Assembly: GCA_946414315.1 (NCBI GenBank) | Contig: CAMKNZ010000014.1 | Location: 1 to 56,086, forward strand | DNA from: an uncultured Clostridia bacterium | GTDB taxonomy: Bacteria; Bacillota; Clostridia; Christensenellales; Aristaeellaceae | Length of the DNA: 56,086 bases | Direction of reading: 5' to 3' | In this document: positions 24,095 through 56,086 of the stretch, one piece after another | Position numbering within the stretch: the stretch's first letter is position 1 | How the letters are laid out: every line of letters begins with the position of its first letter | Made by a program: the position numbers and the translations under genes | Notes under the pieces: model-generated | The model's input: only the letters and a program-made list of their open reading frames with translations | Databases searched by the model: none | What the model was told of the DNA's origin: nothing

Positions 24095-24130
24095 AAAAAA
24101 GGGACAGCTTCGATGCTGTCCCCTTTTTTT
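24095..24130. terminator. Bidirectional terminator between the GH13 gene and the convergent PT-rich gene
   Basis: AAAAAAGGGACAGC / GCTGTCCCCTTTTTTT with loop TTCGAT. Both strands have a T-tract after a GC stem. The minus-strand gene's stop codon touches its right edge. Confidence 0.92.
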
Positions 24131-25860
24131 CACTCTACCTCGTGATCACCGTAATCATATTTGGTGTCCTTAATGAGGTTTCCGTCGTCGTCGTATTGAT
24201 ACCGGTGGCTCACCGCGCCATCCTCCAGCATAATGGCAAACCCGTCCGTATCATAGTATTTCTCATATACAACCCGGTTATATGCGTCAAATTCACGGTA
24301 AACGATCGAGTATCCGGCTTTGCATCGTACCGGGTTCCCGTTCTGGTCAAAATACTTTTCTCGGTTGATGTTGCCCGCCTTGTCATAGGTATATTCAATC
24401 CGGTAATACGTATCATCTCCATAAGGAACTGGGTTATCATTTTCATCTCGCCAGGTCACGGAGATCGTTTTCTTTCCGCTCACAACCCGCAGTCGTGTAA
24501 TGAATCCTTTTTCTCCCTTCACCTTATTGCCGCTGTAGTCATAATAAGTCTCGCGGATTACTGTTTCCTCTTCAGACTCCTCTGTTTGCAATACAGGTGC
24601 CGGTGTTTCAGTTGGTTCCGGCGTATCCGTCGGTTCCGGCGTCGGTGTGTCTGTCGGTACCGGTGTCGGCGTCGGTATCGGCGTTGGCGTTGGTGTGGGA
24701 GTCAGGGTGGGCGTAGGTTCAGCAGTCGGCGTAGGCGTAGGACTGTATGTCGGCGTCAGAAACTCCGTCGGTTCCGGTGTCGGTGTATCCGTCGGTGTTG
24801 GTGTCGGAGTTGGTGTAGGCGCTGGTGTTGGCGTCGGAGTTGGTGTTGGCGTCGAAGTTGGTGTCGGAGTTGGTGTCGGAGTTGGTGTAGGCGCCGGCGT
24901 CGGTGTGGGTGTCGGAGTGTCCGTCGGTGTCGGTGTCGGAGTTGGTGTATGCGTTGATGTTGGCGTCGGAGTTGGTGCTGGTGTAGACGTTGGTGTTGGT
25001 GTAGGCGTTGGTGTTGGCGTCGGAGTTGGTGTGGGCGTCAGCATCGGTGTGTTTTGTTCTTCAGGTATCTTGGTCGCCTTTGGCGTTGGTGTAGGCGTCA
25101 TCAGCGGAATGACTGTCGGAGTCAAAGTCGGTTCAGGAGATGGTGTCGGAGTTGCTGTCGGTTCAGGGGTATCTGTTGGCTCAGGTGTCGGTGTTGGAGT
25201 CGGTGTTGGTGTAGGCGTAGCTGTCGGCGTAGGCGTGGGCGTAGACGTCGGTGTTGGTGTGGGCGTCGGTTCAGGTGTGGCCGTTGGTTCAGGTGTCGGC
25301 GTTGTCCTTGTTTTCGCCGGTTCCATCACCTCTCCCTCCGGTAGTCCCTCAATGCAGGGAACGCCTTCCGGGGTCAGCACTTTAAACAGCAGTGTGTTTT
25401 CCGCATCCTTCGGCTTCACCTTTCGTCCGCTCACATTGGCAAACGTGCCGCCGTCGATCATCTTCTCTTTGTCATAATGGACGGTAATCCGGGAGTATCC
25501 TTCTTCACCGACGGCAATCGTTTTGCCGTCTTCATCGTAGAATGTGATCTTGGTGACCGCTGTCCGTTTGCTGTTGTAGTCGTATTTGATCACGGCGTAT
25601 CCGTCCCGGTTTTTTACCCGGTTCCCTTCCTCGTCAAGGTAACGGATCTTGTTGGGCCATTTGGATCTGCCCTGATACTCCATTTCAAGGATCGCGTATC
25701 CTTCCGGCCCCTCCGTCGGATTTCCCGCTTCGTCGGTAAAGATATACCGGATCGTATTCTGTTGTTTGTTGATCTCAATCTGATAGCCGCTATCTGCGCC
25801 TGCGGTACCCCAGCAGAGCAGAAGCACTGCTGCTGTCATCAACGCAAGAATCCGTTTCAT
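24130..25860 (-). CDS. Exported protein: YD-like repeats split by a long Pro-Thr linker
   Basis: 576 residues from ATG 25860, chosen over 25866 because GGAGG then sits 8 nt upstream. A signal peptide ([22 protein letters not shown]) leads to three or four repeats of the form YxDExGNxVxxxxGYAxIxxxY (~25-155). A Pro-Thr linker (~185-430) is built from TPTP units with occasional EPT, DTP and STP, and a C-terminal block of about four more repeats follows, ending [10 protein letters not shown]. No sorting motif, dockerin or membrane tail is seen. The repeats match those of the 1485-residue protein at 26622-31079, so the two are probably partners or paralogues. The PT linker resembles glycosylated extended spacers of surface proteins. 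Function unknown. Confidence 0.8.
24598..25330 (-). repeat. Pro-Thr coding low-complexity tract
   Basis: Six-base PT-coding units (minus strand ACxCCx) repeated for roughly 700 nt with interspersed Glu, Asp, Ser and Ala codons, broken once by an unrelated segment around 25010-25110 ([20 protein letters not shown]). The third positions vary (GTC, GTT, GTG, GTA on the + strand), so the peptide pattern is kept while the DNA drifts. Likely length-variable between strains. Confidence 0.85.
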
Positions 25861-25893
25861 TTGCATAGCCTCCGGCCGGTACTCTGTTTACCG

Positions 25894-25925
25894 AAAAAAT
25901 CCCCGAACCTCTTCGATTCGGGGAT
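25894..25925 (-). terminator. Terminator of the 177-residue exported protein gene
   Basis: ATCCCCGAA / TTCGGGGAT, 9-bp perfect stem with 9-nt loop, followed on the minus strand by TTTTTT. It lies between this gene and the PT-rich gene, for which I see no clear separate promoter, so read-through may matter. Confidence 0.78.
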
Positions 25926-25946
25926 ATGATAATTTTTTTCTGCTGC

Positions 25947-26480
25947 TTACTTACTCACAGGAATCGCAATGAAAGGATTGTTGGCAATCTTCGCCAGTTC
26001 TTCAACAGTAACCTTCACAACCACATCGCCATCCTTGTTGGCAACGCCGGTCTTCACGATCCATTCCACTTCCGCGTCAGCGTCGGCATAATCAATACCG
26101 ATCAGCACGGTCACTTCTTCGCCTTCTTCATAGGGGGACTCAAACTTGAAGATCAGCTCCAGTTCGCCCTTTACAGCACTTACATCGCCTTCCAGCTTCC
26201 AGCAGGTCAGTTCGTTGATCGTTTTGTGTTCAGCAGGAATCTTGGCGAGCAGTTCTTCCGGCAGGCCTTTCAGCGCGTCTCCTTCGTCCTTATAGGCGCC
26301 TTTGATCTTCTCGATGAGCTTTGCCAGTTTGTCAGTAGGATCAATCTTCACCAGCTTGATCTCTTCATCACCGGTATCGCCCCCCGTAATGTCCTTGTTT
26401 CCCTTGGAGTTTTCGGCCAACGCGCTTACAGCGGTCAGAATCATCATTACAGCCAGAACCAGAGCAAGGATCTTTTTCAT
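25947..26480 (-). CDS. Small exported acidic protein, unknown family
   Basis: 177 residues. Signal peptide MKKILALVLAVMMILTAVSALA with AxA-type cleavage, then a mature acidic protein. The first part (~25-80) is Lys/Glu-rich and probably helical (DKLAKLIEKIKGAYKDEGDALKGL). The second (~90-177) looks like a single beta-sandwich (ELELIFKFESPYEEGEEVTVLIGI, VKTGVANKDGDVVVKVTVEELAKI). There are no Cys-based motifs beyond one Cys, and no anchor. SD GGGGGAAGC lies before the ATG. It has its own promoter with an embedded palindrome and its own terminator, so it is an independently regulated single gene within the surface locus. I do not recognise the family. Confidence 0.75.
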   Translation of the reverse strand: MKKILALVLAVMMILTAVSALAENSKGNKDITGGDTGDEEIKLVKIDPTDKLAKLIEKIKGAYKDEGDALKGLPEELLAKIPAEHKTINELTCWKLEGDVSAVKGELELIFKFESPYEEGEEVTVLIGIDYADADAEVEWIVKTGVANKDGDVVVKVTVEELAKIANNPFIAIPVSK

Positions 26481-26621: not shown

Positions 26622-29600
26622 TTATTCTTTTTTACTCCCATCCGGCAGCAGATACTCCTCTCCGGTCATTTTTCCTTTCTTGTTGTAGGTCCGGACCACC
26701 TTGAAATATCCGTCTTTACAGAGCATCGGCTGCCCTTCCGCGTCAAAATACTGTTCCTGGATTACATTTCCCTTCTTGTCATAGTCGTATGTCGTCTGGT
26801 ATACGCCCTTGCTGTTCGCCATCGGTTGACCGTTATGATCCATATAGCTCTCATAGATTACTTTCTTATTGCCGTTATACCGTTTCCATACCATTTCATA
26901 ACCGGCAATGCATGCAACCGGTATCATGTTTTCATCCAGGTATTTTTCAACGCAGACGTTTCCGGCTTCGTCATATTCTTTTTGTCTTATACTGTAGGTG
27001 TCGTTCCGTGTTGTCGGCTGACCGGCAGTGTCGAACCAGGCTTCCTGGATCACCTGTTTCTTGCTGTTGTATTCCCGCCGGATTCCGGCATATCCGCCCT
27101 TGCAATCGATCGGTTGCCCATCCGGACCGTAATAGTATTCCTCGTTTGTATTTCCGCGCTCGTCGAATCCTCTTACGATCTTTACATAGGTATTGCCCAT
27201 CGTCATCGGTTTATCGTCCGTGTCAAACCAGGCTTCACTGGTAATATGCTTCTCATCCCGGTAAGTTTTCTCGATTCGGTGATATTTGTTCTTCGTATGG
27301 ATAACGGGTTCTCCAGCCGTACCGAAATAAGCCTCGCTGGCAACGAGTCCGTCTTCGCCGTAGGTCCGTTCGGTCACGGCTACGCCGTATATATTCGCCG
27401 TCGGTTCGCCATCCGTCAGGCATTCAACCCGGATTGCTTGGTTCTTTTCGTTAAATGCTCGCCGGACCTCGTCATACCCGCCGTTCCGGGCGATTGGGTT
27501 CCCGTCCGCGCCGTAGGTGATCTCCCTCACCGTGTTCCCACGCTCGTCAAACTCCCGTTCGATCTTCACATACGTATCGCCCGTCGTCATCGGCTGCCCA
27601 TCCGCGTCGAACCAGGCTTCGCTGGTAATATGCTTCTCGTCCCGGTATGTCTTCTCGACCCGGTGATATTGGCTCTTCGCGTGCGCCACCGGCTCGCCGT
27701 TTACGCCGTAATACGCCTCAACGGCAATCAGTCCGTCTTCGCCGTATGTTCGTTCGATCACAGCCAGTCCGTTCACGTTCAGCGTCGGTTGGCCGCCCGT
27801 CAGGTATTCAACCCGGATTACGCGGTTCTTTTCGTCAAACGTCCGCCGGACCTCGTCATATCCGCTGTCCCGGGCGATCGGGTTCCCGTCCGCGCCGTAG
27901 GTAATCTCCCTCACCGTGTTCCCGCGCTCATCAAACTCTCGTTCGATCTTCACATATGTATCGCCCGTCGTCATCGGCTGCCCATCCGCGTCGAACCACG
28001 CCTCGCTGGTAATATGCTTTTCATCCCGGTATGTCTTTTCGACCCGGTGATACTGGTTCTTTGTGTGGATAACGGGTTCTCCGGCCGTACCGAAATAGGC
28101 TTCGCTGGTAATGAGTCCCTTATCGTCATATGTCCGCTCAACTACAGCTACGCCGTTCACATTCAGTGTCGGCTTTCCGGCTGTCAGATACTCATACCGG
28201 ATCGCGCGGTTCTTTTCATCAAATGTCCGCCGGACCTCGTCATATCCGCCGTTCCGGGCAGTCCGCTTGCCGTACCGGTCATAGGTGATTTCCTTCACCG
28301 TATTCCCGCGCTCGTCAAACGTCCTGACAATCTTCACATAGGTATCCCCGTGAGTGATCGGCTTGCCCCATGGATCAAACCATGCTTCGCTGGTAATGTG
28401 TTTCTCGTCCCGGTATGTCCTTTCGATCCGGGCATACTGGTTTTCCGTATGCATGGTGACTTCGCCTTTGGCGTTCAGGTACCATTCCTTTGCGACAAAC
28501 CCCTGCTCGTCATAAGTTCTCTGTCTCACAGCTACGCCGTAGATATTCTCTTTCAGCTCTCCGTTCGTGTAATAGCTGGTCTGTATCGCGTGTCCCTGTT
28601 CGTCGTATATAACCCGCACTTCGTCATATCCGTCCTTGCGCTGGATGGGATTGCCTTCCGCGTCGAAGGTCTTCGTGGCGATTGTGTTTCCGTTGTTGTC
28701 AAACGTCCGTTCTATTCTCGCATAGGTATCGCTGACCGCAATGCCCTGTCCCTCTGCGTCAAACCATGCTTCGCTCGTAATATGATCTATGTCTCTGTAG
28801 GTTCTTTCGATCCGGGCATATTTTGTCTTGCTGTTCACCACAGGCTTTCCGTCTGCGTCATAATATATTACGCTCAGGGCCAGCCCCCGGTAATCGTTCT
28901 CCCGCTTATAACTGTGGTATCCTTCCGCGAGGGTCGCCTTTTCACCTTCCGCCGTATAATAGGCCGCCCGGGTCAGCGCGTTTTTGCTGTTATATTCCCT
29001 TTCGATCACCGCATAACCGGCCTTCAGGTTTACCGGGTTCTTCTCTGCGTCGTAATAGCTTTCCTTAATCACCTTGCCGGCTTTGTTTGTCAGCTTTTCA
29101 ACCCGGGCATATCCGGCTTTCAGGTTCATCAGTTGGTTATCGGTTCCGTAGTATTCCGTAATGGTTCCCCGAAGGCCGGTCCCTGTCGGTATATTTACTG
29201 TTTCGTCGTCAGTTCCTTCGTCTGTTTCTTCGGTTTCTTTTTCCGTGGTTGCCGGTTCCGTCTGTTCCGCTTCGTATGAGATCACTTCGTCTTCCTCGTC
29301 GTCTTCATCTTCCGCGTCTGTTTTTTCATCCGGATCCGCTTCCTCGTTTTCTTCCGTTTCCTCCTTTTCTTCCCCTTCTTCGTCTTCTGCGTCTTCTGCG
29401 TCTTCTGTTTCTTCCTCGTCTTCCTCGTCCTCGTCCAGTGCGCTCAGATCCTGCAGCAGAATCGTTTTCACATAGGCGTATTCCTTGCCCGGTGTCTGCG
29501 TCAGTTCACCTTTTGCGTTGTAATACCTCACGCTCATCTTGTCGCCCTGGCTGTTGTATTCGGTTTCCACAGAGGCGTATCCGGCCGAAATCTCCAGCGG

Positions 29601-31079
29601 GTTTCCCTTTGTGTCAAAAAAACTCTTCCGGCGAATTTTCCCGGATCCGTTGTATTCCATCCGGATTTCGTGATATCCGCCCTTGCCGTTCTCAGGTTCT
29701 CCTGCCGCGGTCCAATAGCTTTCGGATATCTTGTTCTTGCCCTCCCAGGTGTTCCTTACTTCTTCCGCTCCGGCCGCTCCGTTGCATGGATTGCCTTCTG
29801 CGTCATACCAGTTGGTCCTGATAATCTGATTCGCGTCGTTCCGCTCATAAGTAACCCGGGCATATCCGGCTGCAATATTAACCGGCGTTTTTTTATCAGT
29901 ATCGAAATAGCTTGTGCTGATCAGTTTCTTGCCGTCATACCGGTTAAACAGATAAGCGTACCCCTCCGGGTTCAGCACGGTCCTCCCTTTTTCGTCCACG
30001 TATTCCGTATCGGCGATTCGCTTGTTCGACACCGTGTTTTTCACCCGGCTGTATCCAAGCTTTTCCACTGTCATCGGCTTGTCGTTCTCATCCAGGTACT
30101 GCACGCTAGTAAGAACTTTTCTCATATAGCGCCGATATACGCCGCTGTATCCGTCCGTACTCCGGCCGCGCTCGTTTTCACCGGTAAAATAATATTCTGC
30201 CTTTATATGCTTGGTGTTTAGTTTTTCAATGCCACATATCCCTTTTTCGTTGTAATACAGCGTCCCGTCTGCGTTGTAATACATCGTTCTGATCTGCTGG
30301 TTTTGATGGTAGCTGTATTTTACGCAGGCATATCCGTCCGGCCCGGCAATCGGTTCGTTATCCGGTCCGTAAAAGCGGGTCGCGATAAGCTTTGTCCCGG
30401 TGAACTCGCGTTCCATCCGGGCATATCCGGCCTTTTTGTAATAGAACAGATTCCCCTGCTCGTCATAATAAGCAACCTTGCTCTTGGTTTTTGATACATA
30501 TTCCACTTCCATCCTGGCATAGCCGTTCGGCCCTGCAACCGGCCTGTCGTTCACGTCATACCAGCCGTCAGTCTTGATCCTGTTGCTGTCGTAATACAGC
30601 GTGATCCGGTGTGTGTTCACCGGATTTCCGTCCGGGTCATATTGCCATTCTTCTCTGTATTTCCCGAAGGCGGACTTCACTTCGTATTGGGCATACCCTG
30701 CCGGACCGGTAACCAGGTTTCCGTCTGCGTCTAAATACTTCTGCCCGGTGACTTTTCTTCCGGTGTAGTTGTATTTCCGTTCTATCGCGGCATAACCGTC
30801 TTTGCCGTTGATCAGGTTTCCCTCCAGGTCCAGCAGTTCGATCTTGATGAGGCTCCGGTATCTTTTTCCTGTATAGATATACTTGATCGTGGCATATCCC
30901 TTGTCGCTGGCAATCGTCGGATTACCGTTATCGTCAACATATGTCTCCGTGGTAATCTTGTTTTTTGTCGTCTTGGTGGTCGCTGATACGATCTTCAGGT
31001 TTGTGCTCAGCTCCGCACCGGCCTGTCCGGCCAGAATTAAAGCGCCCAAAACCAAAAACAACCCGATTAGTTTCCTCAT
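26622..31079 (-). CDS. Large exported YD-like repeat protein
   Basis: 1485 residues from ATG 31079, preferred over 31085 because GGAG then sits 6 nt upstream. Signal peptide MRKLIGLFLVLGALILAGQAGA. Nearly the whole mature protein is about 30 repeats of ~43 residues with the form ...YYDAxGxPVxxxxGYAxxExxYxxxGxI, reminiscent of RHS/YD or other beta-strand repeats. A Glu/Asp-rich linker (~540-650) divides it. The C-terminal half contains a higher-order repeat of exactly 128 residues. No RHS core box, toxin tip, sorting signal or dockerin. It is the last gene of the CpsCD-LCP-CpsB operon, 28 nt after cpsB, which suggests its export or attachment is tied to that system. A secreted structural or sugar-binding fibre is plausible; function unknown. 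Confidence 0.85.
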   Translation of the reverse strand: MRKLIGLFLVLGALILAGQAGAELSTNLKIVSATTKTTKNKITTETYVDDNGNPTIASDKGYATIKYIYTGKRYRSLIKIELLDLEGNLINGKDGYAAIERKYNYTGRKVTGQKYLDADGNLVTGPAGYAQYEVKSAFGKYREEWQYDPDGNPVNTHRITLYYDSNRIKTDGWYDVNDRPVAGPNGYARMEVEYVSKTKSKVAYYDEQGNLFYYKKAGYARMEREFTGTKLIATRFYGPDNEPIAGPDGYACVKYSYHQNQQIRTMYYNADGTLYYNEKGICGIEKLNTKHIKAEYYFTGENERGRSTDGYSGVYRRYMRKVLTSVQYLDENDKPMTVEKLGYSRVKNTVSNKRIADTEYVDEKGRTVLNPEGYAYLFNRYDGKKLISTSYFDTDKKTPVNIAAGYARVTYERNDANQIIRTNWYDAEGNPCNGAAGAEEVRNTWEGKNKISESYWTAAGEPENGKGGYHEIRMEYNGSGKIRRKSFFDTKGNPLEISAGYASVETEYNSQGDKMSVRYYNAKGELTQTPGKEYAYVKTILLQDLSALDEDEEDEEETEDAEDAEDEEGEEKEETEENEEADPDEKTDAEDEDDEEDEVISYEAEQTEPATTEKETEETDEGTDDETVNIPTGTGLRGTITEYYGTDNQLMNLKAGYARVEKLTNKAGKVIKESYYDAEKNPVNLKAGYAVIEREYNSKNALTRAAYYTAEGEKATLAEGYHSYKRENDYRGLALSVIYYDADGKPVVNSKTKYARIERTYRDIDHITSEAWFDAEGQGIAVSDTYARIERTFDNNGNTIATKTFDAEGNPIQRKDGYDEVRVIYDEQGHAIQTSYYTNGELKENIYGVAVRQRTYDEQGFVAKEWYLNAKGEVTMHTENQYARIERTYRDEKHITSEAWFDPWGKPITHGDTYVKIVRTFDERGNTVKEITYDRYGKRTARNGGYDEVRRTFDEKNRAIRYEYLTAGKPTLNVNGVAVVERTYDDKGLITSEAYFGTAGEPVIHTKNQYHRVEKTYRDEKHITSEAWFDADGQPMTTGDTYVKIEREFDERGNTVREITYGADGNPIARDSGYDEVRRTFDEKNRVIRVEYLTGGQPTLNVNGLAVIERTYGEDGLIAVEAYYGVNGEPVAHAKSQYHRVEKTYRDEKHITSEAWFDADGQPMTTGDTYVKIEREFDERGNTVREITYGADGNPIARNGGYDEVRRAFNEKNQAIRVECLTDGEPTANIYGVAVTERTYGEDGLVASEAYFGTAGEPVIHTKNKYHRIEKTYRDEKHITSEAWFDTDDKPMTMGNTYVKIVRGFDERGNTNEEYYYGPDGQPIDCKGGYAGIRREYNSKKQVIQEAWFDTAGQPTTRNDTYSIRQKEYDEAGNVCVEKYLDENMIPVACIAGYEMVWKRYNGNKKVIYESYMDHNGQPMANSKGVYQTTYDYDKKGNVIQEQYFDAEGQPMLCKDGYFKVVRTYNKKGKMTGEEYLLPDGSKKE
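27087..28760 (-). repeat. 384-nt tandem super-repeat within the YD-like repeat gene
   Basis: The same position of the unit recurs at 27087, 27471, 27855, 28239 and 28623, that is, four successive steps of exactly 384 nt (128 codons, three ~43-residue units). Comparing 27471-27670 with 27855-28054, most differences are at third codon positions. The outer copies are more diverged. Confidence 0.85.
29200..29460 (-). other. Coding region of a Glu/Asp-rich linker
   Basis: About 85 codons dominated by Glu and Asp (for example DEDEEDEEETEDAEDAEDEE), then EQTEPATTEKETEETDEGTDDE. It splits the repeat array into a longer C-terminal and a shorter N-terminal part. Likely an extended, strongly charged, possibly calcium-binding spacer. 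Confidence 0.8.
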
Positions 31080-31107
31080 ATTCATCTCCGTTTTCTCTTT
31101 GTCCCAT

Positions 31108-31815
31108 TTAATCCTGAATCAGTTCTTCTGCATTCTTCAGTATCCTGTCAATAACCCGGTCTCCGTATTTTACCCGTGCCGCCTTGATTCCTTCCGTCAT
31201 GCACGTCCCGCGGCCTTCCATAGAATGGGTGTCCGTTGCGATAAAGTCCACCAGTCCTTCTTTGAAGATCCCGTCAAAGAATCCCCTCCGCAGCAGCGGC
31301 TGCTTTCTCGTCAGCGTCCGGGCGTTGATCTGCACCATCGCTCTGAACCGGCTCTTCATCTCTTTCACCTGGCTGATCTTCCCGATCGCCGGATACCGCT
31401 CCATGTGGGCGATGATTGGAATAAACCCGCTCCCCGCCACTTTCTGAAGTGCGTCAAAGATATGGTCGTTCGTATCCGTCGGGCTGAATTCGATCATCGC
31501 GTGTTTCGTCTCCGCCATTGACAGGACCCGGCCTTCCCGCAGCAGCCTCGACGTCGGGTCCGTATAAAGAATCTCCGCGCCTTTGTACAGCTTCAGTGCC
31601 AGCCCTTCCTGCCGGATGTATTGCTTCGCGGCATCAAAATGCTGGAGGAAAACATCCTCCGGAAATTCATACACTCCCGGCGTCACATGCGGCGTGCAGA
31701 CAATGGCTCCGATTCCGTCCGCCACCGCCTCCTGCAGCATCCTTTGCGTTTCTTCCTTCGTCTTCGCCCCGTCATCCACGCCCCAGATCACATGGCTGTG
31801 AATATCAACAAACAC
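31108..31815 (-). CDS. cpsB: CpsB/YwqE-type PHP tyrosine-protein phosphatase
   Basis: 235 residues from a GTG at 31815 (AAGGAA about 10 nt upstream). The PHP metal site is complete: DIHSH (D4, H6, H8), DDG, TPH (H43), GAE (E81), IIAHMERY and IATDTHS near the C-terminus. Members dephosphorylate the BY-kinase CpsD and thereby set polymer output. It lies between the LCP gene and the large repeat-protein gene, in the same operon as its expected partners CpsC and CpsD. Nothing appears missing. Confidence 0.92.
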   Translation of the reverse strand: MFVDIHSHVIWGVDDGAKTKEETQRMLQEAVADGIGAIVCTPHVTPGVYEFPEDVFLQHFDAAKQYIRQEGLALKLYKGAEILYTDPTSRLLREGRVLSMAETKHAMIEFSPTDTNDHIFDALQKVAGSGFIPIIAHMERYPAIGKISQVKEMKSRFRAMVQINARTLTRKQPLLRRGFFDGIFKEGLVDFIATDTHSMEGRGTCMTEGIKAARVKYGDRVIDRILKNAEELIQD

Positions 31816-32910: not shown

Positions 32911-33551
32911 TTACTGATCACCACTGGCGATGCAAACAGTCTTTCGATGGCATACGCCAGCCCTTCGTTTGATGTGTCTTTTTCAATCAGCGCGCATATG
33001 GCCGCTCCTGTCCCTTTTTCTTTATCAAGCTTTTCCCGATAGTTGTCCGCCTGCGAAAAGATCAGGTTAAAGGTAATATATCCGGCCGTCTCGCCTTCTG
33101 TTTTCACCGGTTCTGTCATCAGCAGGTAGGTATATGCGCCGGCGCCGGCTTCTTCCGTCATGAACACATGCACCTTCGTACCGTTCAGGATGTTTTCGTC
33201 TTCGATAACGTCAACCGGCGCGTATTCATGGCTGAACAGTTCCGTCCCGTCCGCTTTTTTGCCTGTGATCCGGCTTCCGTCGACGCTCAGGTCTTCCACG
33301 CCGTTTTCCAGCACGTGTCCCTGCAGCATCATCATCTTCAGCTGTTCGCCGCTCAGCCCGGACAGATTCATGCTTTCGCCGAATGTCTTCGCCGCTTCGT
33401 TCCATACTTCTTCCAGTCCGTCCTGCGCCAGTGCCAGTGAAAAGCTCAGCCATCCGGCTTCATGCTGCCATGCTTCCGTTCCGGTTTCTTCCGCCCATGC
33501 GCCTCCGGCCAGAAACATCATTGCCAGCACCATGCAGATGATCTTCTTCAT
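32907..33551 (-). CDS. Exported protein, weak ZinT/calycin-like resemblance
   Basis: 214 residues with a signal peptide (MKKIICMVLAMMFLAGGAWA). The mature part has a short helical start (EEVWNEAAKTFGESMNLSG) followed by alternating beta strands with ITGKKADGTELFSHEYAPVDV, KVHVFMTEEAGAGAYTYLLM and AGYITFNLIFSQADNYREKL. The strand pattern and the DG..LF..EY segment recall the ZinT lipocalin-like metal-binding domain, but its histidine cluster is absent, so metal binding is doubtful. GGAGG lies 9 nt before the ATG. Translationally coupled to the LCP gene (4-nt overlap), so probably an extracytoplasmic accessory of it. Family assignment is tentative. Confidence 0.6.
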   Translation of the reverse strand: MKKIICMVLAMMFLAGGAWAEETGTEAWQHEAGWLSFSLALAQDGLEEVWNEAAKTFGESMNLSGLSGEQLKMMMLQGHVLENGVEDLSVDGSRITGKKADGTELFSHEYAPVDVIEDENILNGTKVHVFMTEEAGAGAYTYLLMTEPVKTEGETAGYITFNLIFSQADNYREKLDKEKGTGAAICALIEKDTSNEGLAYAIERLFASPVVISK

Positions 33552-49500: not shown

Positions 49501-52500
49501 CCGTCCCAGTCGGTCCACTCGCTGATGATCTCACCATCGTTGTCCCTGACCTCAACCCGCCAGCTGCTCGTATGGTTTTCCAGTCCTGCCACGGTAAATT
49601 GGAGACCCAGCTCGCTGTTCACCTCAAAGGCGTTGTCCGCCGGTCCGGTCAGGGCAACCGTTGCCGTTCCTTCATAGCGGATCTGCCGGGTCTCCCGCGG
49701 GCTGCTTTCCGCGCTGGTCCATTCTTCCGTATCCTGATCCAGATACCACGCTTCCGCCCAGATGGTATAGTCTCCCTCTTCCAGGCGCTGTCCGTTTATA
49801 AAGACACACTCGCCCCCATAGGTGTCCGGATAGTCCTCCGGGTCTTCTTCGCCCTCTCCGGCTTTCAGGTAGTGGATCACAATCTTGTCCGCGCCCTTTG
49901 CGTAGGCGGATACGGGGAAGTCCATATCGGCATGGATGGTCTCCGGGATCTCCAGGATCACCTCGCCGTCTTCCGGCTCGGTCACCGTGATCAGCTGTCT
50001 TCCCCTGCCGTCGCAGTTCCATTCGCAGTTCGTAGCGCTCGTGTCCACGTATACATACCAGTCTCCCGCTTCCAGTTCGCTCGTCGGAATCTGCACCGTG
50101 AACGGGATCGCCGCTTCCAGGAACTGTCCGTTCCGATCTGCGCCATCGTCGTTCCGGAAATTAATGCTGAAGAAGGTCGGTGTTTTCTGCTCCGCGCCTT
50201 CCTCTTCCGAATCATAGGCGCCTGTTACGTTCACTGTCACAAGCCCGCCGCGTGTCACCGTCTGCGGGCTTACTGCAAAGATTGCTTCTTTGGCTGTTTC
50301 GCTGGCAGTCACGTGAACCGTCACCGCGTTGGATACGCTGCTGCTCCATACCGATTCGCCGTTTACGATATATTCGCCCTGCACCACGACCATCCGGTCG
50401 CCGCTGTCAAACATTTCCGTAAACCGCACCGTATCGTCTCCCGGGCGGTATTGCCCGATATATTGCCATCCCCTGCCGTCACCGCGCATATAGCGCAGCC
50501 CGACGGGCCGCTCGTCCTCATCTCCGCTGATCGTGATTTCAACCGGCACCTTCGTCCTCGCCTGCGTGCTGGTTTCGTTGCTCTCCCCGTTCACCTTCAG
50601 GGAGATATGGTCGTCTTCCCCGGTGACAAACACGATGGTTCCTTCCACCCGGAACGGATCGCCGCCCCGTACGTTGATCTCGATCTGCACCCTGACCCGG
50701 TCGCCGGGCTGGATGTTAACCTCGCTCTGCTGTACCGCAAAGACTGTCGGAATCGGCATCCACGGTGAATAACATTCAAGGATCTCAACGGAGTCTTCAT
50801 CATCCCGTTCCAGCCTCGCCCGGATGTTCCACCATACCGGATCCTTGCCTTCTTCCGTGGTGATGCTGAACAGCGGCAGCCAGGTTTCTTCCGGGTCAGC
50901 TTCGCTCAGGTCGTATATCCAGTCGATGTCCAGTTCAATCCCGTTCTCGCCGCCTTCCACCTCAAACACCAGTGCGTCGGACAGGACAATTTCGTCTGCT
51001 TCATCTTCTTTGTTGATATAGTGGACCTCAACCTGCACGCTCTGCCGGCCCGGATCCAGCGACAGGGTCCTGGAGCCGTATGCGCCCCATTCATACTGCC
51101 ATTCATATCCGTTGAAGAACCGGTAATACTTCCGGTATCCTTCCCGTTCCGGTGCCCAGAAGCTGACCTGGAAATCATCAAACGCAGGTACCGTGTAATC
51201 GTAATCTTCCTCTTCGACGGGCTGTGCCGTCGTCGTCAGCCACAGGCCGCTGGCCGGCGCATGCTCGTTTTCCAGCACAACAAAGCTGCTGTGCTTATCC
51301 ACGTTCGGCTTCCCTGTTTCTTCTGCGAATACCACAATGTGGTAGTATCCCGGCTCCAGCATCGTCGTCGGGATCCGGCAGCTGTACTGCGTGCCGTCAA
51401 GCCGCATATCCTTCCGGATGATCTCCCGGTCATACTGGTATACGGTTGCCGCGCAGATGTTGTATCCGGTGTATCCGTTTTCACCCTGCAGGGTCACGTT
51501 GATCCAGTTTCCCTGCGTCACTGCGCCGATATCCGCCTCTCCGTCAAACCGTACCGTCATGCCTGTCGGCGCCCCTTCGGTAATCAGTTCGATGGTAAAT
51601 ATCTCGTCCTCCGTCACCGGCTCCCATACCGGTTCTTCGTCTTCGCCGGGTTCTTCATAGCAGGCCTGAGCAAATACCTGTACCGTCCCCGTGAACCAGT
51701 AATCCCAGTCGTATTGATATTCGCAGTTTTCTTCGGGCTCCAGGTATTCAAACTCTTCGCCCTTCCAGAAGCGCACCATCACGGCGTCCGGAACCTGGAA
51801 CCGGAACAGCACCGGCTGGTGCAGCAGCAGTGTTGCGGGGCTCTGGATCTCTGTTTCTGTCGGTTGATGGGTGTTCTCGTCGAATTCCCTAATCACCGCG
51901 CTCAGGAGAATTGGATTGTGCGTCTTCTCTTCCGCCACCGCGGTGATCTTCCTGGTGATATAAATCGGCTGATACCCTTCCGCAAAGATGTTCAGTTTCA
52001 GTTCATACGTATGGCCGACGATCAGGTCATCTCCATCAACGCTCAGCTCAGTGTCGTCATTCAGCATGCCCCAGTTCTCGCCGTCGGGGGTGATCCGGAT
52101 CCAGGCCCAGCCGTCCTCCAAGTCAGAGAACTGTGCCTCATATTGCACCCGGGTTCCTTCTTCCACGGCCGGCCGCTCAATCGTGATGCTCCAGTCTTCT
52201 CCCGCGGTCATGGTGTCGGGGATCTCCGGCAGGAAACCGTCATTCAGCTGCGCACCCTGCGCATACAGCGTCTCTTCGCCGATGGTCTCCTTCGTTCCGT
52301 CCTCAGCCACTGCCTCCGCCCGGATCACCGTCTCCTCGTCCGTCAGCATACCGTAGTATTCGGCCAGCGCTCCCGGCTCCGCCTGTTGGATCGTGTCGTT
52401 CACATAGAAGAAGATGTTCTCCGCGTCCGGCGCGTAGGCAACCACGTGCAGCCCGCTGCACATAGCTGCCGGATGACCCGCGCTGCCGGACTCCCCTTCC

Positions 52501-54917
52501 GGTTCAAGAACGATCATCTCCGCTTCACCCGGCACGATCATGAACGAAGCGTCCAGCGAACCCGTCTCGTAGTTCCATCGGTCCGCCATGATATGGATCT
52601 GGTATTCGCCGTATTCCATATCTTCCGGGAATCCCGGTCTGCAGACGACCTTCCCGTTCTTCATGTTTCCTTCTGTGCCCGTCTCGCCGTCCTCATAGCT
52701 CAGCCCGGGCATGCCCCAGGTGGCAGCGAGATACTGGTCGGCCTTGTCGGGATCGTTGTAGTCCTCACCCTCCCCGTCATACCAGAAGGAGGCCTCCGCG
52801 AAATACGCCGCCTCGTCCCACCCATCCTTGGTGATGATCACGTTAATGTGCTGCGGGAACTTCGTCGTAAAGCTAAAGCTGAAGTTCGAAAGTTCCGTGG
52901 CGGAAACCGTCGCCGGCAGGTCGACGAACACCGGTGCTTCCAGTTCGCCGGTCTTTGTCAGCGTGAATTCCTTCGTGACAACCGTATCCTCCAGGATCTG
53001 GTCATTCTCGTTTTCGTCACGGGTCCAGATCGCCGCTTCCAGCACGTAGTCTCCGGGCCTGCCGATCCTCAGGTCTGTTTCCCAGAAATCATTAGGATCC
53101 CCGCCCTTGTCATACCAATTATCACCCGGGTTGAATCTCTCCTCCAGCGGACAGTAATCCTCTGCTTCAAAAATACGGAGCCGTAGCCATTCGTTTTCCG
53201 TCAGGGCAGCTCCGCCCGTATACCGGGCATAGAAACAGATCGGGGCTGAGACGACATATTCGTCGTTCATGCTCACCACAATAGCGCCCTGTACAGGCGT
53301 CACCTGGAACCGGATCCCGGTATCCGATGTCACCAGCCTGTTGTCTTCCCCGCCGCCGGAGGTATATACGTGTACCTCATAGGTCTTGTTTGCTTCACAG
53401 TTGGTCATCGGGATGTGCACCACGGTCCATCCGGGAACCCATTCTTTTTCCACCGGGTGCGTATCCGCGATCTCGTCCGTCTGTCCGTATTCCGTGATAT
53501 ATGCACCATAGAAATTAGCGCTGTTGTTCTGAATCTCGACTGCCAGCACTTTATCCTGCGGAATCAGCAGGATATCGTTGCCTGCGCTGATGGTCTCGTA
53601 TTCTCCTGCCGTGCGGGCGGTCAGCGCCGGGGCGGACGCCGCCGTCGCGGACAGGCCCAGCCAGCCGTCCTTGTTGAACTGGGCGTATGTATCGTCGTCG
53701 AATATATATTCGATTTCGCTTCCGCCAGCCGTATAATAATAGGTTTTATCATTCGCGCCTGTATCCGTATATCCGTCCAGGAACAGTCCGCCATTTGCAC
53801 CGATGGCGGGGCGGTTTCCCTCCGCCACATTTCCGTCGCTGTTCGTCACATCGGCAATGTAATGATGGTTGTTCATCTGTACAATGTTCCACATGTGCGG
53901 GCCGCCGTCCATTTCGCCGCTCACGCAGATCACTTTGACCGCGTCCTCTTCGCTCCATTCGCTCTGATCGCACAGATACATGAATGCTTTGGAGTATCCC
54001 TCGCACACCACCGTAGTACCCGGATTCCCGTCAAACACCCATACCAACTGCCAGGGATCCCCGTAGCCTTCGGTCCATTGTTTTTCATCTGCCGCTTCAT
54101 GGTTATAATCTGTCAGCCTGCAGATTTCGTTCTTGTATGCTGTCAGTTTTTCATAGTCGTCCAGGCCGGCATTGGTCTGAACGATGCTGCCAGCATTGTC
54201 CGCTGCGTCATGCACACCCTGGATCTTGCTGCTGTTGATCGTATACTGGCTGTTGCCGATATAGGAATTGTTCACCATGATCCGGATTGTCATAGAAACC
54301 GTGATCGTCTGCACCGGGCTCAACGTGCCGCCGTAACTTGATTGCGCTGAGAAGATATTCTTTCCCTCTCCCTTGTCCATCCAGAACATTTCATAGGGGC
54401 AGTCATAAAGCACCGCCTTGAACGCCTTGTTAGGAACACCCGCCATCAGTTCCTGGACCTTCGTAGAGGCTGCGTCACGAATGTGATAATAGCCATCGTC
54501 TCTAAGTTCAAACAGGTCCTGTCCATCCATGTCCAGATCTGCTGCGGCAAAGGTAAAGATGTTTTCAAACACAAATGAGGTGGAAGACAGATTTCCCGCC
54601 GCCACCTGTTCCACTTGTTCCCTCAGCGCATTATATACAATCCGCTCGCGGCTGCTTTCTCCGAGTCCTTCGCCGCCCACGTATCCGCGTAGCGGTACGG
54701 AGTATTCTTCCACTGGCGTTACCGGTAGGCCAAATACGCTGTTCAGGTATTCTTTTTCTGCAATCTCGCTGGTAACCCTGGCCCCGAGGTCAGAAAGATC
54801 CGCCTCCACTTCGATGGTCTCTATGATCTCCTCCGCCGCCGCGATGCTACCAAAGGCGCTCATTGCCAGACAGACTGCCAGACACAGCACGATGATGATC
54901 CATATCCTGCGCTTCAT
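46581..54917 (-). CDS. Giant exported transglutaminase-like, Ig-repeat, LRR protein (2778 residues)
   Basis: Start at ATG 54917 because AAGGAGG lies 9 nt upstream. Signal peptide MKRRIWIIIVLCLAVCLAMSAFGSIAAA. Residues ~40-400 form a transglutaminase-type (papain-fold) domain: Cys305 in TTVVCEGYSKAFMYLC, His341 in GGPHMWNIV, Asp356 in HHYIADVT, the canonical order and spacing. After it come some 20 Ig/fibronectin-like beta modules rich in Trp, Asp and Glu (recurring ...GTWTYWARY, ...PGKYRICIG, ...AGDWYVYVD strands) up to ~2680. An LRR_5 cap (SLTTLESEAFRGINARMIIIP ... VIPNSVTKIDEYAFG) ends the protein at YGYIELTGE. No wall anchor. The N-terminal domain could crosslink or cleave extracellular proteins; the giant neighbours are obvious candidate substrates (inference). 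Confidence 0.87.
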   Translation of the reverse strand: MKRRIWIIIVLCLAVCLAMSAFGSIAAAEEIIETIEVEADLSDLGARVTSEIAEKEYLNSVFGLPVTPVEEYSVPLRGYVGGEGLGESSRERIVYNALREQVEQVAAGNLSSTSFVFENIFTFAAADLDMDGQDLFELRDDGYYHIRDAASTKVQELMAGVPNKAFKAVLYDCPYEMFWMDKGEGKNIFSAQSSYGGTLSPVQTITVSMTIRIMVNNSYIGNSQYTINSSKIQGVHDAADNAGSIVQTNAGLDDYEKLTAYKNEICRLTDYNHEAADEKQWTEGYGDPWQLVWVFDGNPGTTVVCEGYSKAFMYLCDQSEWSEEDAVKVICVSGEMDGGPHMWNIVQMNNHHYIADVTNSDGNVAEGNRPAIGANGGLFLDGYTDTGANDKTYYYTAGGSEIEYIFDDDTYAQFNKDGWLGLSATAASAPALTARTAGEYETISAGNDILLIPQDKVLAVEIQNNSANFYGAYITEYGQTDEIADTHPVEKEWVPGWTVVHIPMTNCEANKTYEVHVYTSGGGEDNRLVTSDTGIRFQVTPVQGAIVVSMNDEYVVSAPICFYARYTGGAALTENEWLRLRIFEAEDYCPLEERFNPGDNWYDKGGDPNDFWETDLRIGRPGDYVLEAAIWTRDENENDQILEDTVVTKEFTLTKTGELEAPVFVDLPATVSATELSNFSFSFTTKFPQHINVIITKDGWDEAAYFAEASFWYDGEGEDYNDPDKADQYLAATWGMPGLSYEDGETGTEGNMKNGKVVCRPGFPEDMEYGEYQIHIMADRWNYETGSLDASFMIVPGEAEMIVLEPEGESGSAGHPAAMCSGLHVVAYAPDAENIFFYVNDTIQQAEPGALAEYYGMLTDEETVIRAEAVAEDGTKETIGEETLYAQGAQLNDGFLPEIPDTMTAGEDWSITIERPAVEEGTRVQYEAQFSDLEDGWAWIRITPDGENWGMLNDDTELSVDGDDLIVGHTYELKLNIFAEGYQPIYITRKITAVAEEKTHNPILLSAVIREFDENTHQPTETEIQSPATLLLHQPVLFRFQVPDAVMVRFWKGEEFEYLEPEENCEYQYDWDYWFTGTVQVFAQACYEEPGEDEEPVWEPVTEDEIFTIELITEGAPTGMTVRFDGEADIGAVTQGNWINVTLQGENGYTGYNICAATVYQYDREIIRKDMRLDGTQYSCRIPTTMLEPGYYHIVVFAEETGKPNVDKHSSFVVLENEHAPASGLWLTTTAQPVEEEDYDYTVPAFDDFQVSFWAPEREGYRKYYRFFNGYEWQYEWGAYGSRTLSLDPGRQSVQVEVHYINKEDEADEIVLSDALVFEVEGGENGIELDIDWIYDLSEADPEETWLPLFSITTEEGKDPVWWNIRARLERDDEDSVEILECYSPWMPIPTVFAVQQSEVNIQPGDRVRVQIEINVRGGDPFRVEGTIVFVTGEDDHISLKVNGESNETSTQARTKVPVEITISGDEDERPVGLRYMRGDGRGWQYIGQYRPGDDTVRFTEMFDSGDRMVVVQGEYIVNGESVWSSSVSNAVTVHVTASETAKEAIFAVSPQTVTRGGLVTVNVTGAYDSEEEGAEQKTPTFFSINFRNDDGADRNGQFLEAAIPFTVQIPTSELEAGDWYVYVDTSATNCEWNCDGRGRQLITVTEPEDGEVILEIPETIHADMDFPVSAYAKGADKIVIHYLKAGEGEEDPEDYPDTYGGECVFINGQRLEEGDYTIWAEAWYLDQDTEEWTSAESSPRETRQIRYEGTATVALTGPADNAFEVNSELGLQFTVAGLENHTSSWRVEVRDNDGEIISEWTDWDGPEAVNGVTTFSVTEGLSCGERYYIKAEAWGEPGWRGDFAEIQVLGIETTTGMALSLDPEEIMISGHVTATVTGVPANATYVQLIKEYGNTDIKRVDAETHTATFEAELHNKGTWTYWARYTTQNVPVDDNDIWAYDWDSVTWAGGSNAATLTVSSRGRLPEPDVTLSNTAWDENYTSGYTQGDVLKVTINSDPTGEYLTGHEFWYYVNIFRGIDYDEEQDEWTWSHEDHQDRMGRGSQILIPTYDYAPGKYRICIGMGTAEWEDNEKAFIIDIVEAEEAPAFVLQIGTTELQTCEETEILLYAKDAERVGVIITRSEDPEWQDERWDDRETGRWSWSAGAADEYTITPYVDGIAMQEETMTLQVSATGSLKDPEIGMASVITAGSDLTVNVTAKGTKPAEGEASDESIIADDVHIQLTDVSGPQGWSRGEGTIYPDADGTGSYTFSGNEFDYEGIYQVDAHSNKRNWNSGHAEKQVIVVNDAKDTTKTVTLTIDGRNDAQMTYPSSRQMRIEVSAPGADAIRLINGNQREDREGDRFDEYRNYGGDTVIMAMASYDDGLTWTGWSNIIEVKITNEGSLGEPNFGPISNSYTRGETLTVTIGEDPATDKEVEIAPAVWYYAEIDRQETDGDNNTYWNHLPEWHWNWTGAEDRKFNISTFPLEPGNYRLRIVVDAEGWRDNMVEAGTFTIVNPNEFVTDIPEEIPANSEREYYALIPGAALTRYHVLKKNDQNEYDEYFGWNEWIEGDCARIPLNIGTAGEFRVVFEAEGASGSDWSETKDFTVTGSELEGEIRITMAAPWTSGALRFSIVTTDPEVYFKVDIQEEGAGGNHWFYRMQRDIEIDGSELSSDCDYRISVEQWKEGYVNSYRNYWIRREAAGQTLELPASLTTLESEAFRGINARMIIIPNYVTRIEENTFADCPNLAAVVIPNSVTKIDEYAFGYTWNMTVYGSSNTAKTFADSKGYGYIELTGE

Positions 54918-54980
54918 GGGTGTTAACCTCCTTGAGTCGGTTAATATCGTCACATAAGAGAAATACTGTTGGATTTGTTT

Positions 54981-55020
54981 TCAGCGTTCCCGGAGTCGAA
55001 CCGGGAAAACCCTACGCTGA
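54981..55020 (-). other. tRNA T-arm-like minihelix upstream of the transglutaminase giant gene
   Basis: Read on the minus strand: TCAGCGT, an 8-nt spacer, CCCGG-TTCGACT-CCGGG, one A, ACGCTGA. The inner hairpin has all conserved T-arm positions (G53, TTC, purine, A58, C61), and the outer 7-bp stem sits where an acceptor stem would be. D and anticodon arms are absent and no CCA follows. It may be a tRNA relic or a leader structure. Confidence 0.45.
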
Positions 55021-55026
55021 TGGAAA

Positions 55027-55048
55027 TGGGAACCCCAAAGGGTTCCCA
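55027..55048 (-). terminator. Hairpin after the partial Ig/LRR gene
   Basis: TGGGAACCC-CTTTG-type perfect 9-bp stem (27-35 with 40-48 of 550xx) and a 4-nt loop, followed by only TTTCC on the minus strand. A weak terminator at best, so read-through into the giant gene is likely. Confidence 0.35.
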
Positions 55049-55055
55049 AAGAGAT

Positions 55056-56086
55056 TTAGTTGCCTGTTGATACGGAATCCATGCTGCTCAGATTTGTACA
55101 GTTCTGGAATGCTCGGGCACCGATTACTTCAATCGAATCCGGAATTATGATGCTTGTCAGAGCAGTATTACCCATAAAGGCTTCAGGTCCGATTTCAATC
55201 AGGGTGATACCATCCAGATACTGGGTCACATCCAGTGCTGATGCAATTCCAAAGTACTTGTACAGGATCCAGCCAGATGCGGTCTGCCGGAAGACAATGC
55301 CATCGTAACCGTTGAAGGCGTCTTCTGCAATTGACGTAACAGAATAGCTTTGAGATTCATATAACACAGTCATCGGAATAAAGATAGCAGGTACAGTATC
55401 ATCTATTGACATAACTGATACTTCTGTTGAACTATCTTTTTTAATCTGATAAGTTATATGATCCACAACGAAAGTGATGTCAGCTGGTTCTACAATCTTT
55501 ACTGCTTTCGAATACAGTACGCTTCCATCATTCCCTGTAATCTTGCAGCGGAACTGCATACTCTTTCGACTGCTCGTTACTTCTACATCTACTACTGAAT
55601 CTTTCGCCCAGTCTCCTGTCCAGCTTGTCCAACTGCCTCCACTCTTTTTATACTGCCATACGTAGCTCGCCGCTCCTGTGGCTACTACCGTGAACCTCGC
55701 ATACCCGCCGATTACGCCTTCTGCGTTTTCCGGCTGCTCCGTGATCTCAAACGGTACTTCCAGTGTGATTCCAACTGCATTTGAATAAACTGTGCTTCCG
55801 TTGATCCCTGTGACCATGCAGCGATAAAGCAATGCAGCACTCTCTTCCGTCGCTTCTATTGCTATCTCGGCTTCCTGTGCCCATGCTTCTTCATAGCTCG
55901 TCCAGGTTTCTCCTGCGTCCTCGCTGTATTGCCACGTGTATCCTGCGGCATTTGTTGCTGTAACTGTAAAGGTTGCATTCCCTCCTGTGACTACTGTCAC
56001 ACTTTCAGGTTGCTGCGTGATCTCACACTGCGGTTCTACAATCTTTACTGCTTTCGAATACAGTACGCTTCCATCATTCCCTGTAA
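55056..56086 (-). CDS. Exported Ig-like / LRR_5 protein, C-terminal part (N-terminus beyond window)
   Basis: The frame is open to the window edge, so at least 343 residues are present and the true start lies outside; the GTG at 56000 is internal to an Ig repeat. At least two Ig-like domains of ~90 residues are seen (ITQQPESVTVVTGGNATFTV ... YRCMVTGINGSTVYSNAVGI; ITEQPENAEGVIGGYARFTV ... FRCKITGNDGSVLYSKAVKI). A linker with IFIPMTVLYESQSYSVTSIAE and an LRR_5 cap (LIEIGPEAFMGNTALTSIIIPDSIEVIGARAF) close the protein. The same Ig-then-LRR plan as the two giants downstream. It appears more AT-rich than its neighbours. Confidence 0.82.
   Translation of the reverse strand, partial: TGNDGSVLYSKAVKIVEPQCEITQQPESVTVVTGGNATFTVTATNAAGYTWQYSEDAGETWTSYEEAWAQEAEIAIEATEESAALLYRCMVTGINGSTVYSNAVGITLEVPFEITEQPENAEGVIGGYARFTVVATGAASYVWQYKKSGGSWTSWTGDWAKDSVVDVEVTSSRKSMQFRCKITGNDGSVLYSKAVKIVEPADITFVVDHITYQIKKDSSTEVSVMSIDDTVPAIFIPMTVLYESQSYSVTSIAEDAFNGYDGIVFRQTASGWILYKYFGIASALDVTQYLDGITLIEIGPEAFMGNTALTSIIIPDSIEVIGARAFQNCTNLSSMDSVSTGN
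55486..55540 (-). repeat. 55-nt exact repeat, copy 1 (Ig-like array)
   Basis: Identical to 56032-56086, 546 nt away, which is 182 codons or two Ig-like modules. Encodes TGNDGSVLYSKAVKIVEP. The second copy runs to the window edge, so the identity may be longer. Confidence 0.9.
56032..56086 (-). repeat. 55-nt exact repeat, copy 2 (truncated by window edge)
   Basis: Exact copy of 55486-55540 in the same frame and orientation, showing recent tandem duplication or gene conversion in the Ig-like array. Confidence 0.9.

What the first reader, a model, noticed from the sequence alone, without database searches (positions are those of the whole stretch)
24130..56086. A 32-kb one-strand surface locus pairing CpsBCD/LCP phospho-control with giant repeat proteins instead of polymer genes
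The window shows CpsC, CpsD, LCP and CpsB in one operon, ending in a 1485-residue exported repeat protein and directly preceded by exported proteins of 3710, 2778 and >343 residues. From established knowledge, CpsBCD and LCP normally accompany Wzx/Wzy, glycosyltransferases and sugar-nucleotide genes; none are here. Inference: the tyrosine-phosphorylation module regulates building or anchoring of a protein-glycan matrix made of these giants, with the LCP enzyme attaching glycan to wall or protein and the transglutaminase-like domain joining chains.
Basis: partly seen in the sequence, partly recalled or inferred. Interest (0 to 1): 0.7.

Follow-up and report, generated by a model that had tools for sequence, protein, structure and literature searches.

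The report
Capsule-control genes with strip-like surface protein
A gut bacterium carries the standard switch-and-anchor genes of a sugar coat next to a long, ribbon-shaped secreted protein, and relatives keep such a ribbon protein inside their sugar-coat operons, suggesting that it helps to assemble or hold the coat; the giant proteins beside it are probably just neighbours.

Summary
The genes are real: cpsC, cpsD, orf214, LCP, cpsB, a 1487-residue repeat protein (REP), orf177 and orf578, behind giants of 3710, 2778 and >342 residues. The window is a whole contig of a 60%-complete MAG, so it cannot be extended. 'Instead of polymer genes' is not the rule: in the closest of five relatives compared (G008) the same five cps genes follow an exopolysaccharide (EPS) gene cluster, and this genome has polysaccharide genes on contig C2. 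Two species (G003, G041) do show cps plus REP without an adjacent EPS cluster. The giants' pairing with cps is not conserved. REP's is: REP and Wzz lie within 15 kb in 15 of 17 genus genomes whose places were listed (15 of 22 if unlisted ones count as misses; about 0.5 expected), and in 13 genomes of three genera the order is Wzz-kinase, REP, LCP, then an initiating sugar transferase. REP is predicted to be a strip of beta-hairpins like YD/Rhs repeats (pLDDT 91-92), without Rhs toxin marks. Most likely REP is a dedicated extracellular partner (binder, tether or acceptor) of the EPS that CpsBCD/LCP controls and anchors. That function is inferred, not shown.

The parts
55056..56084 (-). ORFc: C-terminal 342 aa of a protein cut by the contig end; Ig-like repeats + LRR_5
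   Evidence: Pfam Ig_3 2.2e-5 (below cut-off), LRR_5 9.9e-9; contig ends at 56086
46581..54917 (-). G2: 2778 aa exported giant; transglutaminase-like N-terminal domain with conserved Cys/His/Asp, long middle part without family, C-terminal LRR_5
35335..46467 (-). G3: 3710 aa exported giant; C-terminal LRR_5; relatives elsewhere in G006, G020, G031
34415..35218 (-). cpsC (Wzz-domain chain-length / kinase-partner protein), 267 aa
   Evidence: PF02706 8.7e-12, over cut-off; TIGR01006 1.1e-45, below its cut-off
33635..34408 (-). cpsD (BY-type tyrosine autokinase) with Walker A and Tyr-rich tail, 257 aa
   Evidence: TIGR01007 187.6 bits, cut-off 108; sequence
32907..33551 (-). orf214: secreted protein of no known family, end overlaps the LCP start; homologue (55%) at the same place in G008
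31912..32910 (-). LCP glycopolymer transferase, 332 aa
   Evidence: PF03816 2.6e-25; TIGR00350 over cut-off
31108..31815 (-). cpsB (PHP-type tyrosine phosphatase family), 235 aa
   Evidence: PF19567 2.7e-58
26622..31085 (-). REP: 1487 aa exported protein of about 32-residue YD-like beta-hairpin repeats with an acidic linker
25947..26480 (-). orf177: secreted 177 aa protein, with relatives beside cps/REP in several genomes
25899..25925 (-). intrinsic-terminator-like hairpin (11 pairs, T tail) between orf177 and orf578
24130..25866 (-). orf578: exported, REP-like repeats flanking a Thr/Pro-rich stretch (73 TP dipeptides in the protein)
   Evidence: a G006 homologue scores over the Pfam RHS_repeat cut-off

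Best explanation
The core (cpsC-cpsD-orf214-LCP-cpsB-REP-orf177-orf578) is an EPS/capsule control and anchoring module with its own secreted partner proteins. CpsC/CpsD and the phosphatase CpsB set polymerisation and chain length by the usual tyrosine-phosphorylation cycle; LCP takes finished polymer off its lipid carrier and links it to an acceptor. REP is a long YD-type beta-hairpin strip, exported to the surface, that receives, binds or tethers this EPS. In this genome the polymer would come from genes elsewhere (contig C2 carries a cluster with no Wzz hit of its own) or beyond the contig end. The LRR/Ig giants are separate surface proteins that happen to lie upstream. Shown: gene families, the recurrent REP-Wzz-LCP neighbourhood, EPS-type genes beside it in relatives, the predicted strip fold. 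Inferred: that REP touches the polymer, that LCP acts on this polymer, that C2 supplies it.
For: Families. Same five genes after an EPS-type cluster in G008. 15 of 17 genus genomes with listed REP places and a Wzz hit have them within 15 kb, 0.48 expected under uniform placement (coordinates). Order Wzz-kinase, REP, LCP in 13 genomes of three genera, with REP-LCP gaps of -26 to 61 nt in the 12 measured. REP-like proteins inside EPS-type clusters in two genomes of another family (G318, G184), and one fused to VanZ in an EPS-type cluster of G035. Strip fold: pLDDT 91.3 and 92.3; Foldseek to Rhs/teneurin YD proteins E 3.6e-15. Own-genome polysaccharide genes on C2; a single Wzz hit in the genome, the window's.
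Against: No function of REP is shown. The window has no polymer genes; G003 and G041 likewise have cps+REP without an adjacent EPS cluster. Five more genus genomes (G005, G009, G013, G021, G028) have both a REP match and a Wzz hit, but their REP places were cut's list; counted as misses the figure is 15 of 22. Type-A modules with no REP in the stretch read: G042:C46, G020:C39, G031:C24, G009:C33, G005:C119, G026:C29, G044, G028 (the last two with an orf578 relative; some are short contigs), and G008:C24 and G013:C12, which stop at contig ends. Type-B Wzz at G009:C49 and G008:C10 lack REP too. REP also occurs without EPS genes in the stretch read (about 400-aa forms in several species; G054, G055, G223, G230). 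The MAG is 60% complete, so 'only one Wzz' is weak.
Confidence: 0.6

Rival explanations
1. One reading: a protein-glycan matrix in which the tyrosine-phosphorylation module builds or anchors the giants, with LCP joining glycan to protein and the transglutaminase-like domain cross-linking chains.
For: Giants lie directly upstream on the same strand; G2 has a transglutaminase-like domain with conserved Cys/His/Asp; a homologue of that domain is directly upstream of cpsC in G006, and two more lie within about 15 kb of a REP gene (G031:C6, G026:C9), out of 13 such loci listed outside this genome.
Against: G3-like giants are not beside cps modules in the other genomes searched (61 genomes); the G2 query, mostly through its LRR_5 tail, matches 48 of 61 genomes, so such neighbours are easily met by chance; no giant lies within the stretches read beside cps in G008, G041 or G044.
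Confidence: 0.12
2. REP is an Rhs/WapA-like contact toxin carrier that merely hitch-hikes in EPS loci.
For: Fold similarity to Rhs, Tc and teneurin YD repeats; RHS_repeat scores near or over the cut-off in relatives.
Against: No DPxG-x18-DPxG motif in any of 15 REPs checked; the window REP is repeats to its last residues; type-B REPs keep a nearly constant length of 1933-1985 aa, unlike polymorphic toxins with variable C termini (recalled). No search for immunity genes was made.
Confidence: 0.06
3. REP and orf578 are ordinary adhesins placed in the EPS operon only so that they are made at the same time as the coat, with no direct contact with the polymer.
For: Exported, repeat-rich, no enzyme domain found; orf578 is Thr/Pro-rich like adhesin stalks; REP also found without EPS genes nearby.
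Against: Fixed place between Wzz-kinase and LCP with short gaps and near-constant length across three genera fits a machine part better than a fast-evolving adhesin.
Confidence: 0.22

Closest known systems
Wzy-dependent CPS/EPS control genes cpsBCD with an LCP ligase (pneumococcal type)
   Same: CpsC, CpsD, CpsB and LCP families all present; in relatives beside GTs and an initiating transferase. The review PMC12220298 (passages read) describes CpsCD/CpsB control and LCP ligation to peptidoglycan
   Different: Here followed by REP, orf177 and orf578; polymer genes not adjacent on this contig; extra orf214
YD/Rhs repeat proteins (Rhs effectors, Tc toxins, teneurins)
   Same: Predicted beta-hairpin strip; Foldseek prob 1.00, E 3.6e-15
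   Different: No toxin end, no DPxG pair, no RHS_repeat Pfam hit in the window protein; superposition only local (rmsd 7.5-10.1 A over 208-221 residues in the ten top VIA rows; 4.9 A over 275 for 4igl_D, 3.4 A over 172 for 8qjc), so a closed cocoon is not indicated
Actinomyces oris LcpA/GspA (LCP enzyme that glycosylates a surface protein)
   Same: An LCP enzyme with a surface protein as acceptor is the principle of the novel reading here; abstract and outline of PMC6381275 seen
   Different: GspA is cell-wall-anchored; REP has no LPxTG-type match; glycosylation of REP is untested
LoaP antiterminators of long operons
   Same: LoaP-like NusG paralogues sit in 11 of the 13 kinase-REP-LCP orders and beside type-A modules of G003, G005, G009, G013, G033, G041 and G044; PMC7819879 passages read
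   Different: Six scanned score 28-100 bits against a curated cut-off of 125, so not filed as LoaP; none in the window. The same model also rings below cut-off in 13 of 14 control genomes, as ordinary NusG would
BspA-type LRR / transglutaminase-like surface proteins
   Same: LRR_5 tails; G2 catalytic residues align with PDB 9crn
   Different: Very large; cross-linking activity unknown

Membership tests
CpsBCD tyrosine-phosphorylation module | BY-kinase with Walker motifs and Tyr-rich tail, separate from the Wzz protein | tested here: met
   TIGR01007 over cut-off; Tyr-rich tail in the sequence
CpsBCD tyrosine-phosphorylation module | Wzz-domain membrane partner and PHP-type phosphatase next to the kinase | tested here: met
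   PF02706 and PF19567 over cut-off; TIGR01006 below its cut-off
Complete Wzy-type capsule locus | wzx/wzy/glycosyltransferase/initiating transferase adjacent | tested here: not met
   none recognised in 24130-56086; contig ends. In the sister species G008 GTs and Bac_transf are adjacent; Wzx/Wzy there not scanned
LCP glycopolymer transferases | LytR_cpsA_psr domain over curated cut-off | tested here: met
   89.8 bits, cut-off 24.6
LCP glycopolymer transferases | transfers a glycopolymer to peptidoglycan or protein | not testable with these tools
   needs biochemistry
YD/Rhs repeat family | RHS_repeat Pfam match in the window protein | tested here: not met
   no RHS_repeat among hits at E<=0.1; 21.6 bits (cut-off 22) in G022 REP, 16.1 in G050 REP, 25.1 in a G006 orf578 homologue, none in three other proteins
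YD/Rhs repeat family | beta-hairpin strip fold | tested here: met
   pLDDT 91.3, Foldseek E 3.6e-15
Rhs/Tc toxins | DPxG-x18-DPxG autoprotease motif (motif recalled) | tested here: not met
   0 of 15 REPs
LoaP | NF033641 over cut-off | tested here: not met
   28-100 bits vs 125 in six proteins of relatives; 69 bits in own genome C2; controls ring below cut-off in 13 of 14 genomes
Transglutaminase-like superfamily (G2) | Cys-His-Asp triad | tested here: met
   aligned with 9crn; conserved in the window and the 3 of 9 loci that passed the script's score filter

The most novel reading that the evidence does not exclude
REP is the dedicated acceptor or guide for the capsule: the LCP enzyme encoded next to it loads the finished polysaccharide onto (or along) a fixed-length YD strip instead of, or as well as, peptidoglycan. 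The 43 predicted hairpins of REP1487 (16, 27) would make a flat strip of roughly 40 nm, and the 1933-1985-aa form, about 60 units, roughly 55-60 nm, enough to cross a wall; these lengths are my arithmetic at 4.8 A per strand, assuming one flat layer. This would be a protein-scaffolded capsule controlled by the CpsBCD phosphorelay.
Probability: 0.2. Interest if true: 0.8.

Novelty: new variant of a known kind. Interest (0 to 1): 0.5.

Why it matters
[quoted passage not shown] A YD-strip protein fixed between the Wzz-kinase and the LCP ligase across a family of gut Clostridia points to a possible missing part of the anchoring machinery, and gives YD repeats a possible role outside toxins and teneurins. 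It turns an open question (what, besides peptidoglycan, accepts or holds the polymer) into a gene-by-gene test.

Tried and rejected
Extending the contig on the right: not possible, the window is the whole contig; no other contig of the genome matches the Ig repeats of ORFc, only LRR parts. PDB sequence search with REP gave two matches at E 0.44 and 0.71, and its profile none at E<=1. NCBIfam for REP, orf214, orf578 and orf177: nothing. Direct cpsB-REP junction in G008: contig ends C24 and C56 fit in order but share no overlap, and C24 does not run into REP, so the link is not proven and G008 is a miss in the 15-of-17 count. Promoter/terminator scans gave about as many sites as shuffled sequence; only the hairpin at 25925-25899 and the promoter-like site at 26585-26558 stand out. 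Literature, listings only unless said: YD repeat + exopolysaccharide + LytR-CpsA-Psr, two of three terms (53 papers, 15 listed, none of these holding 'YD repeat'); YD repeat with matrix terms, three of four (3805 papers, 12 listed, one holding 'YD repeat', not read); RHS repeat + exopolysaccharide + tyrosine kinase + gene cluster (0); RHS repeat + LytR + capsular polysaccharide (0); teneurin + YD repeat + carbohydrate (3, not read). None listed describes this arrangement; subscription papers are mostly not held, so this is a thin test of novelty. The taxon (possibly Aristaeellaceae) is my guess from recall; searches do not establish it. One search used only REP hits printed (its list is cut) and Wzz hits of G000-G036; five genomes with both were thereby left out (see the Against line).
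Full report
What is in the window. The window is a whole contig, C14 (56086 bp), of a 2.24-Mb MAG of 54 contigs, 60% complete. On the minus strand, in transcription order: ORFc (contig-cut, 342 aa seen), G2 (2778 aa), G3 (3710 aa), cpsC, cpsD, orf214, LCP, cpsB, REP (1487 aa), orf177, orf578. Pfam and NCBIfam place CpsC, CpsD, LCP and CpsB in their families; TIGR01006 for CpsC is below its curated cut-off, while Pfam Wzz is above. The giants end in LRR_5, ORFc has a sub-threshold Ig match, and G2 has a transglutaminase-like region whose Cys, His and Asp align with PDB 9crn (E 4e-6) and are conserved in the four sequences aligned (the window and 3 of 9 loci given to the script).

Polymer genes. 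None was recognised in 24130-56086. The whole-genome search gives Bac_transf on contigs C2 and C6 and Glycos_transf_1 on C2, C13, C22 and C9. Ten C2 proteins were scanned: Bac_transf, Polysacc_synt_2, LicD, Epimerase_2, Glycos_transf_2, GDP_Man_Dehyd, NTP_transferase and DegT families were found in 8 of 10; two membrane-like proteins had no hit. A LoaP-like gene lies at C2:44 kb, below the LoaP cut-off, in a search whose controls also ring below cut-off. The window's CpsC is the only Wzz hit in this incomplete genome. So an EPS-type cluster exists in the genome, unlinked on present contigs, and the window module could serve it in trans (inference).

Relatives, type A (short CpsC plus separate CpsD). 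G008:C24 has cpsC-cpsD-orf214-LCP-cpsB, the closest match of the five relatives compared (77, 86, 55, 81 and 74% identity), downstream of an EPS-type cluster: ten of its proteins were scanned and all ten had a family (two GT2, Epimerase_2, Polysacc_synt_2, a second epimerase, UDPG_MGDP_dh, NTP_transferase, GHMP kinase, acyltransferase, methyltransferase), and a Bac_transf lies at 33.1 kb; the ORFs between 18 and 33 kb were not scanned, so Wzx and Wzy are not established there. G044 has the module with orf177 and orf578 relatives but no REP, ahead of sugar-nucleotide and EPS-type genes. G006 has cpsC-D-LCP-cpsB-REP-orf177-orf578, with a G2-like transglutaminase-like protein, an epimerase, a nucleotidyltransferase and a GHMP kinase upstream, then a 2697-aa LRR/BACON giant. 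G003 (whole 20.6-kb contig) and G041 (40 of 70 kb annotated) have cps plus REP with no EPS cluster that I could recognise from the gene calls; these were not scanned with Pfam, and a starch-synthase-like and a GT4-like gene lie 4-11 kb upstream in G041. G033 has REP-cpsCD-LCP behind a LoaP-like gene. REP is absent from the stretch read in G042:C46, G020:C39, G031:C24, G009:C33, G005:C119, G026:C29 and G028:C33, and not seen in G013:C12 or G008:C24, which stop at contig ends.

Relatives, type B (Wzz with kinase in one ORF or adjacent, 466-603 aa as called). In 13 genomes (G001, G002, G004, G011, G020, G022, G023, G026, G034, G035, G044, and G050 and G053 of two other genera) the order on one contig is Wzz-kinase, REP of 1933-1985 aa, LCP; an initiating-transferase-like gene follows within about 6 kb of REP in 13 of 13 (10 also by Pfam PF02397; G044, G050, G053 by similarity only), and a LoaP-like gene was listed in 11 of 13 (not in G053, G020). 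The labels come from phmmer against a set of query proteins, one of which (the type-B LCP) scores below the TIGR00350 cut-off at E 7e-12. G036 fits but is split over two contig ends. Type-B Wzz genes without REP: G009:C49 and G008:C10. The 51 stretches were chosen for REP, Wzz or CpsB hits, so this is not a random sample. The less biased figure is: 17 genomes (G000-G036) with a listed REP place and a Wzz hit, 15 within 15 kb, expectation 0.48 under uniform placement; five more genomes (G005, G009, G013, G021, G028) have both kinds of hit but no printed REP place, so the worst case is 15 of 22. REP-LCP gaps are -26 to 61 nt in 12 genomes.

How wide REP is. Full-length window REP as query: 47 of 100 genomes, being 43 of 45 of the genus (own included), 4 of 15 from other genera of the family, 0 of 40 from other families of the order. 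A type-B profile: 4 further genomes among 290 others of the class; in two of them (G318, G184) the REP-like gene lies inside an EPS-type cluster, in two (G223, with an N terminus that looks TIR-like by eye, and G230, a 6.3-kb contig) none was seen. The one named genome scan found 15 loci, all from Clostridia or Clostridiales MAGs by title; those whose titles name a host came from goat, sheep and roe deer gut.

The giants. Relatives of G3 below E 1e-20 were found only in G006:C31, G020:C17 and G031:C6 among 61 genomes (searched with an inner 2999-residue stretch), none beside a cps module; G031:C6 has a REP about 7 kb from its G3/G2-like gene. The G2 N-terminal domain has 13 listed homologous loci outside this genome; three lie within about 15 kb of cpsC or REP (G006:C42, G031:C6, G026:C9), a weak hint only. 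I therefore treat the giants as neighbours in this genome, not as parts of the module.

Mechanism. From established knowledge of CpsBCD (PMC12220298, passages) the kinase cycle controls polymerisation and LCP ligates polymer to peptidoglycan. A. oris LcpA shows that an LCP enzyme can mediate glycosylation of a protein (PMC6381275, abstract and outline). REP's recurrent place and, in type B, near-constant length argue that it is a structural part of EPS assembly or retention; aromatic residues make up 11.6-14.4% of the 15 REPs examined, compatible with glycan binding. Whether it binds, carries or merely accompanies the polymer is not shown.

Noticed in passing
L200:7400-8863 (G035:C1:1262400-1263863); REP-like genes of similar size in EPS clusters of G022 and G001: REP-like repeats fused to a VanZ domain (Pfam 3e-15, tested only in G035) near GHMP kinase and nucleotidyltransferase genes.
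   Followed up: partly
L238:10417-14187 (G223:C64): A 1256-aa protein with a TIR-like N terminus (by eye) followed by REP-like repeats, with no EPS genes recognised nearby.
   Followed up: no
L240:9828-12215 (G184:C3): A membrane-like N terminus followed by REP-like repeats, between a LoaP-like/PolSyn2-like pair and a sugar-transferase-like gene: possibly a polymerase-type protein with a YD strip.
   Followed up: no
G007:C29, G025:C8, G036:C29, G040:C9, G043:C30, G031:C44, G018:C16: REP-like proteins of about 400 aa recur in the genus; no EPS query matched in the stretches read (5-20 kb) except a GT2-like gene about 6.5 kb away in G018. Function unknown.
   Followed up: no
G041:C21:6806-12751: Tandem copies of cpsC-cpsD, one followed by LCP, the other by cpsB.
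   Followed up: no
window 447-9616: Arginine/carbamoyl-phosphate genes in a row (semialdehyde dehydrogenase, GNAT, ArgJ, AA kinase, class-III aminotransferase, CPSase small and large chains).
   Followed up: no
G000:C42:4540-5286: A second, divergent CpsB-like PHP gene in this genome, on a 9-kb contig without a Wzz hit.
   Followed up: no
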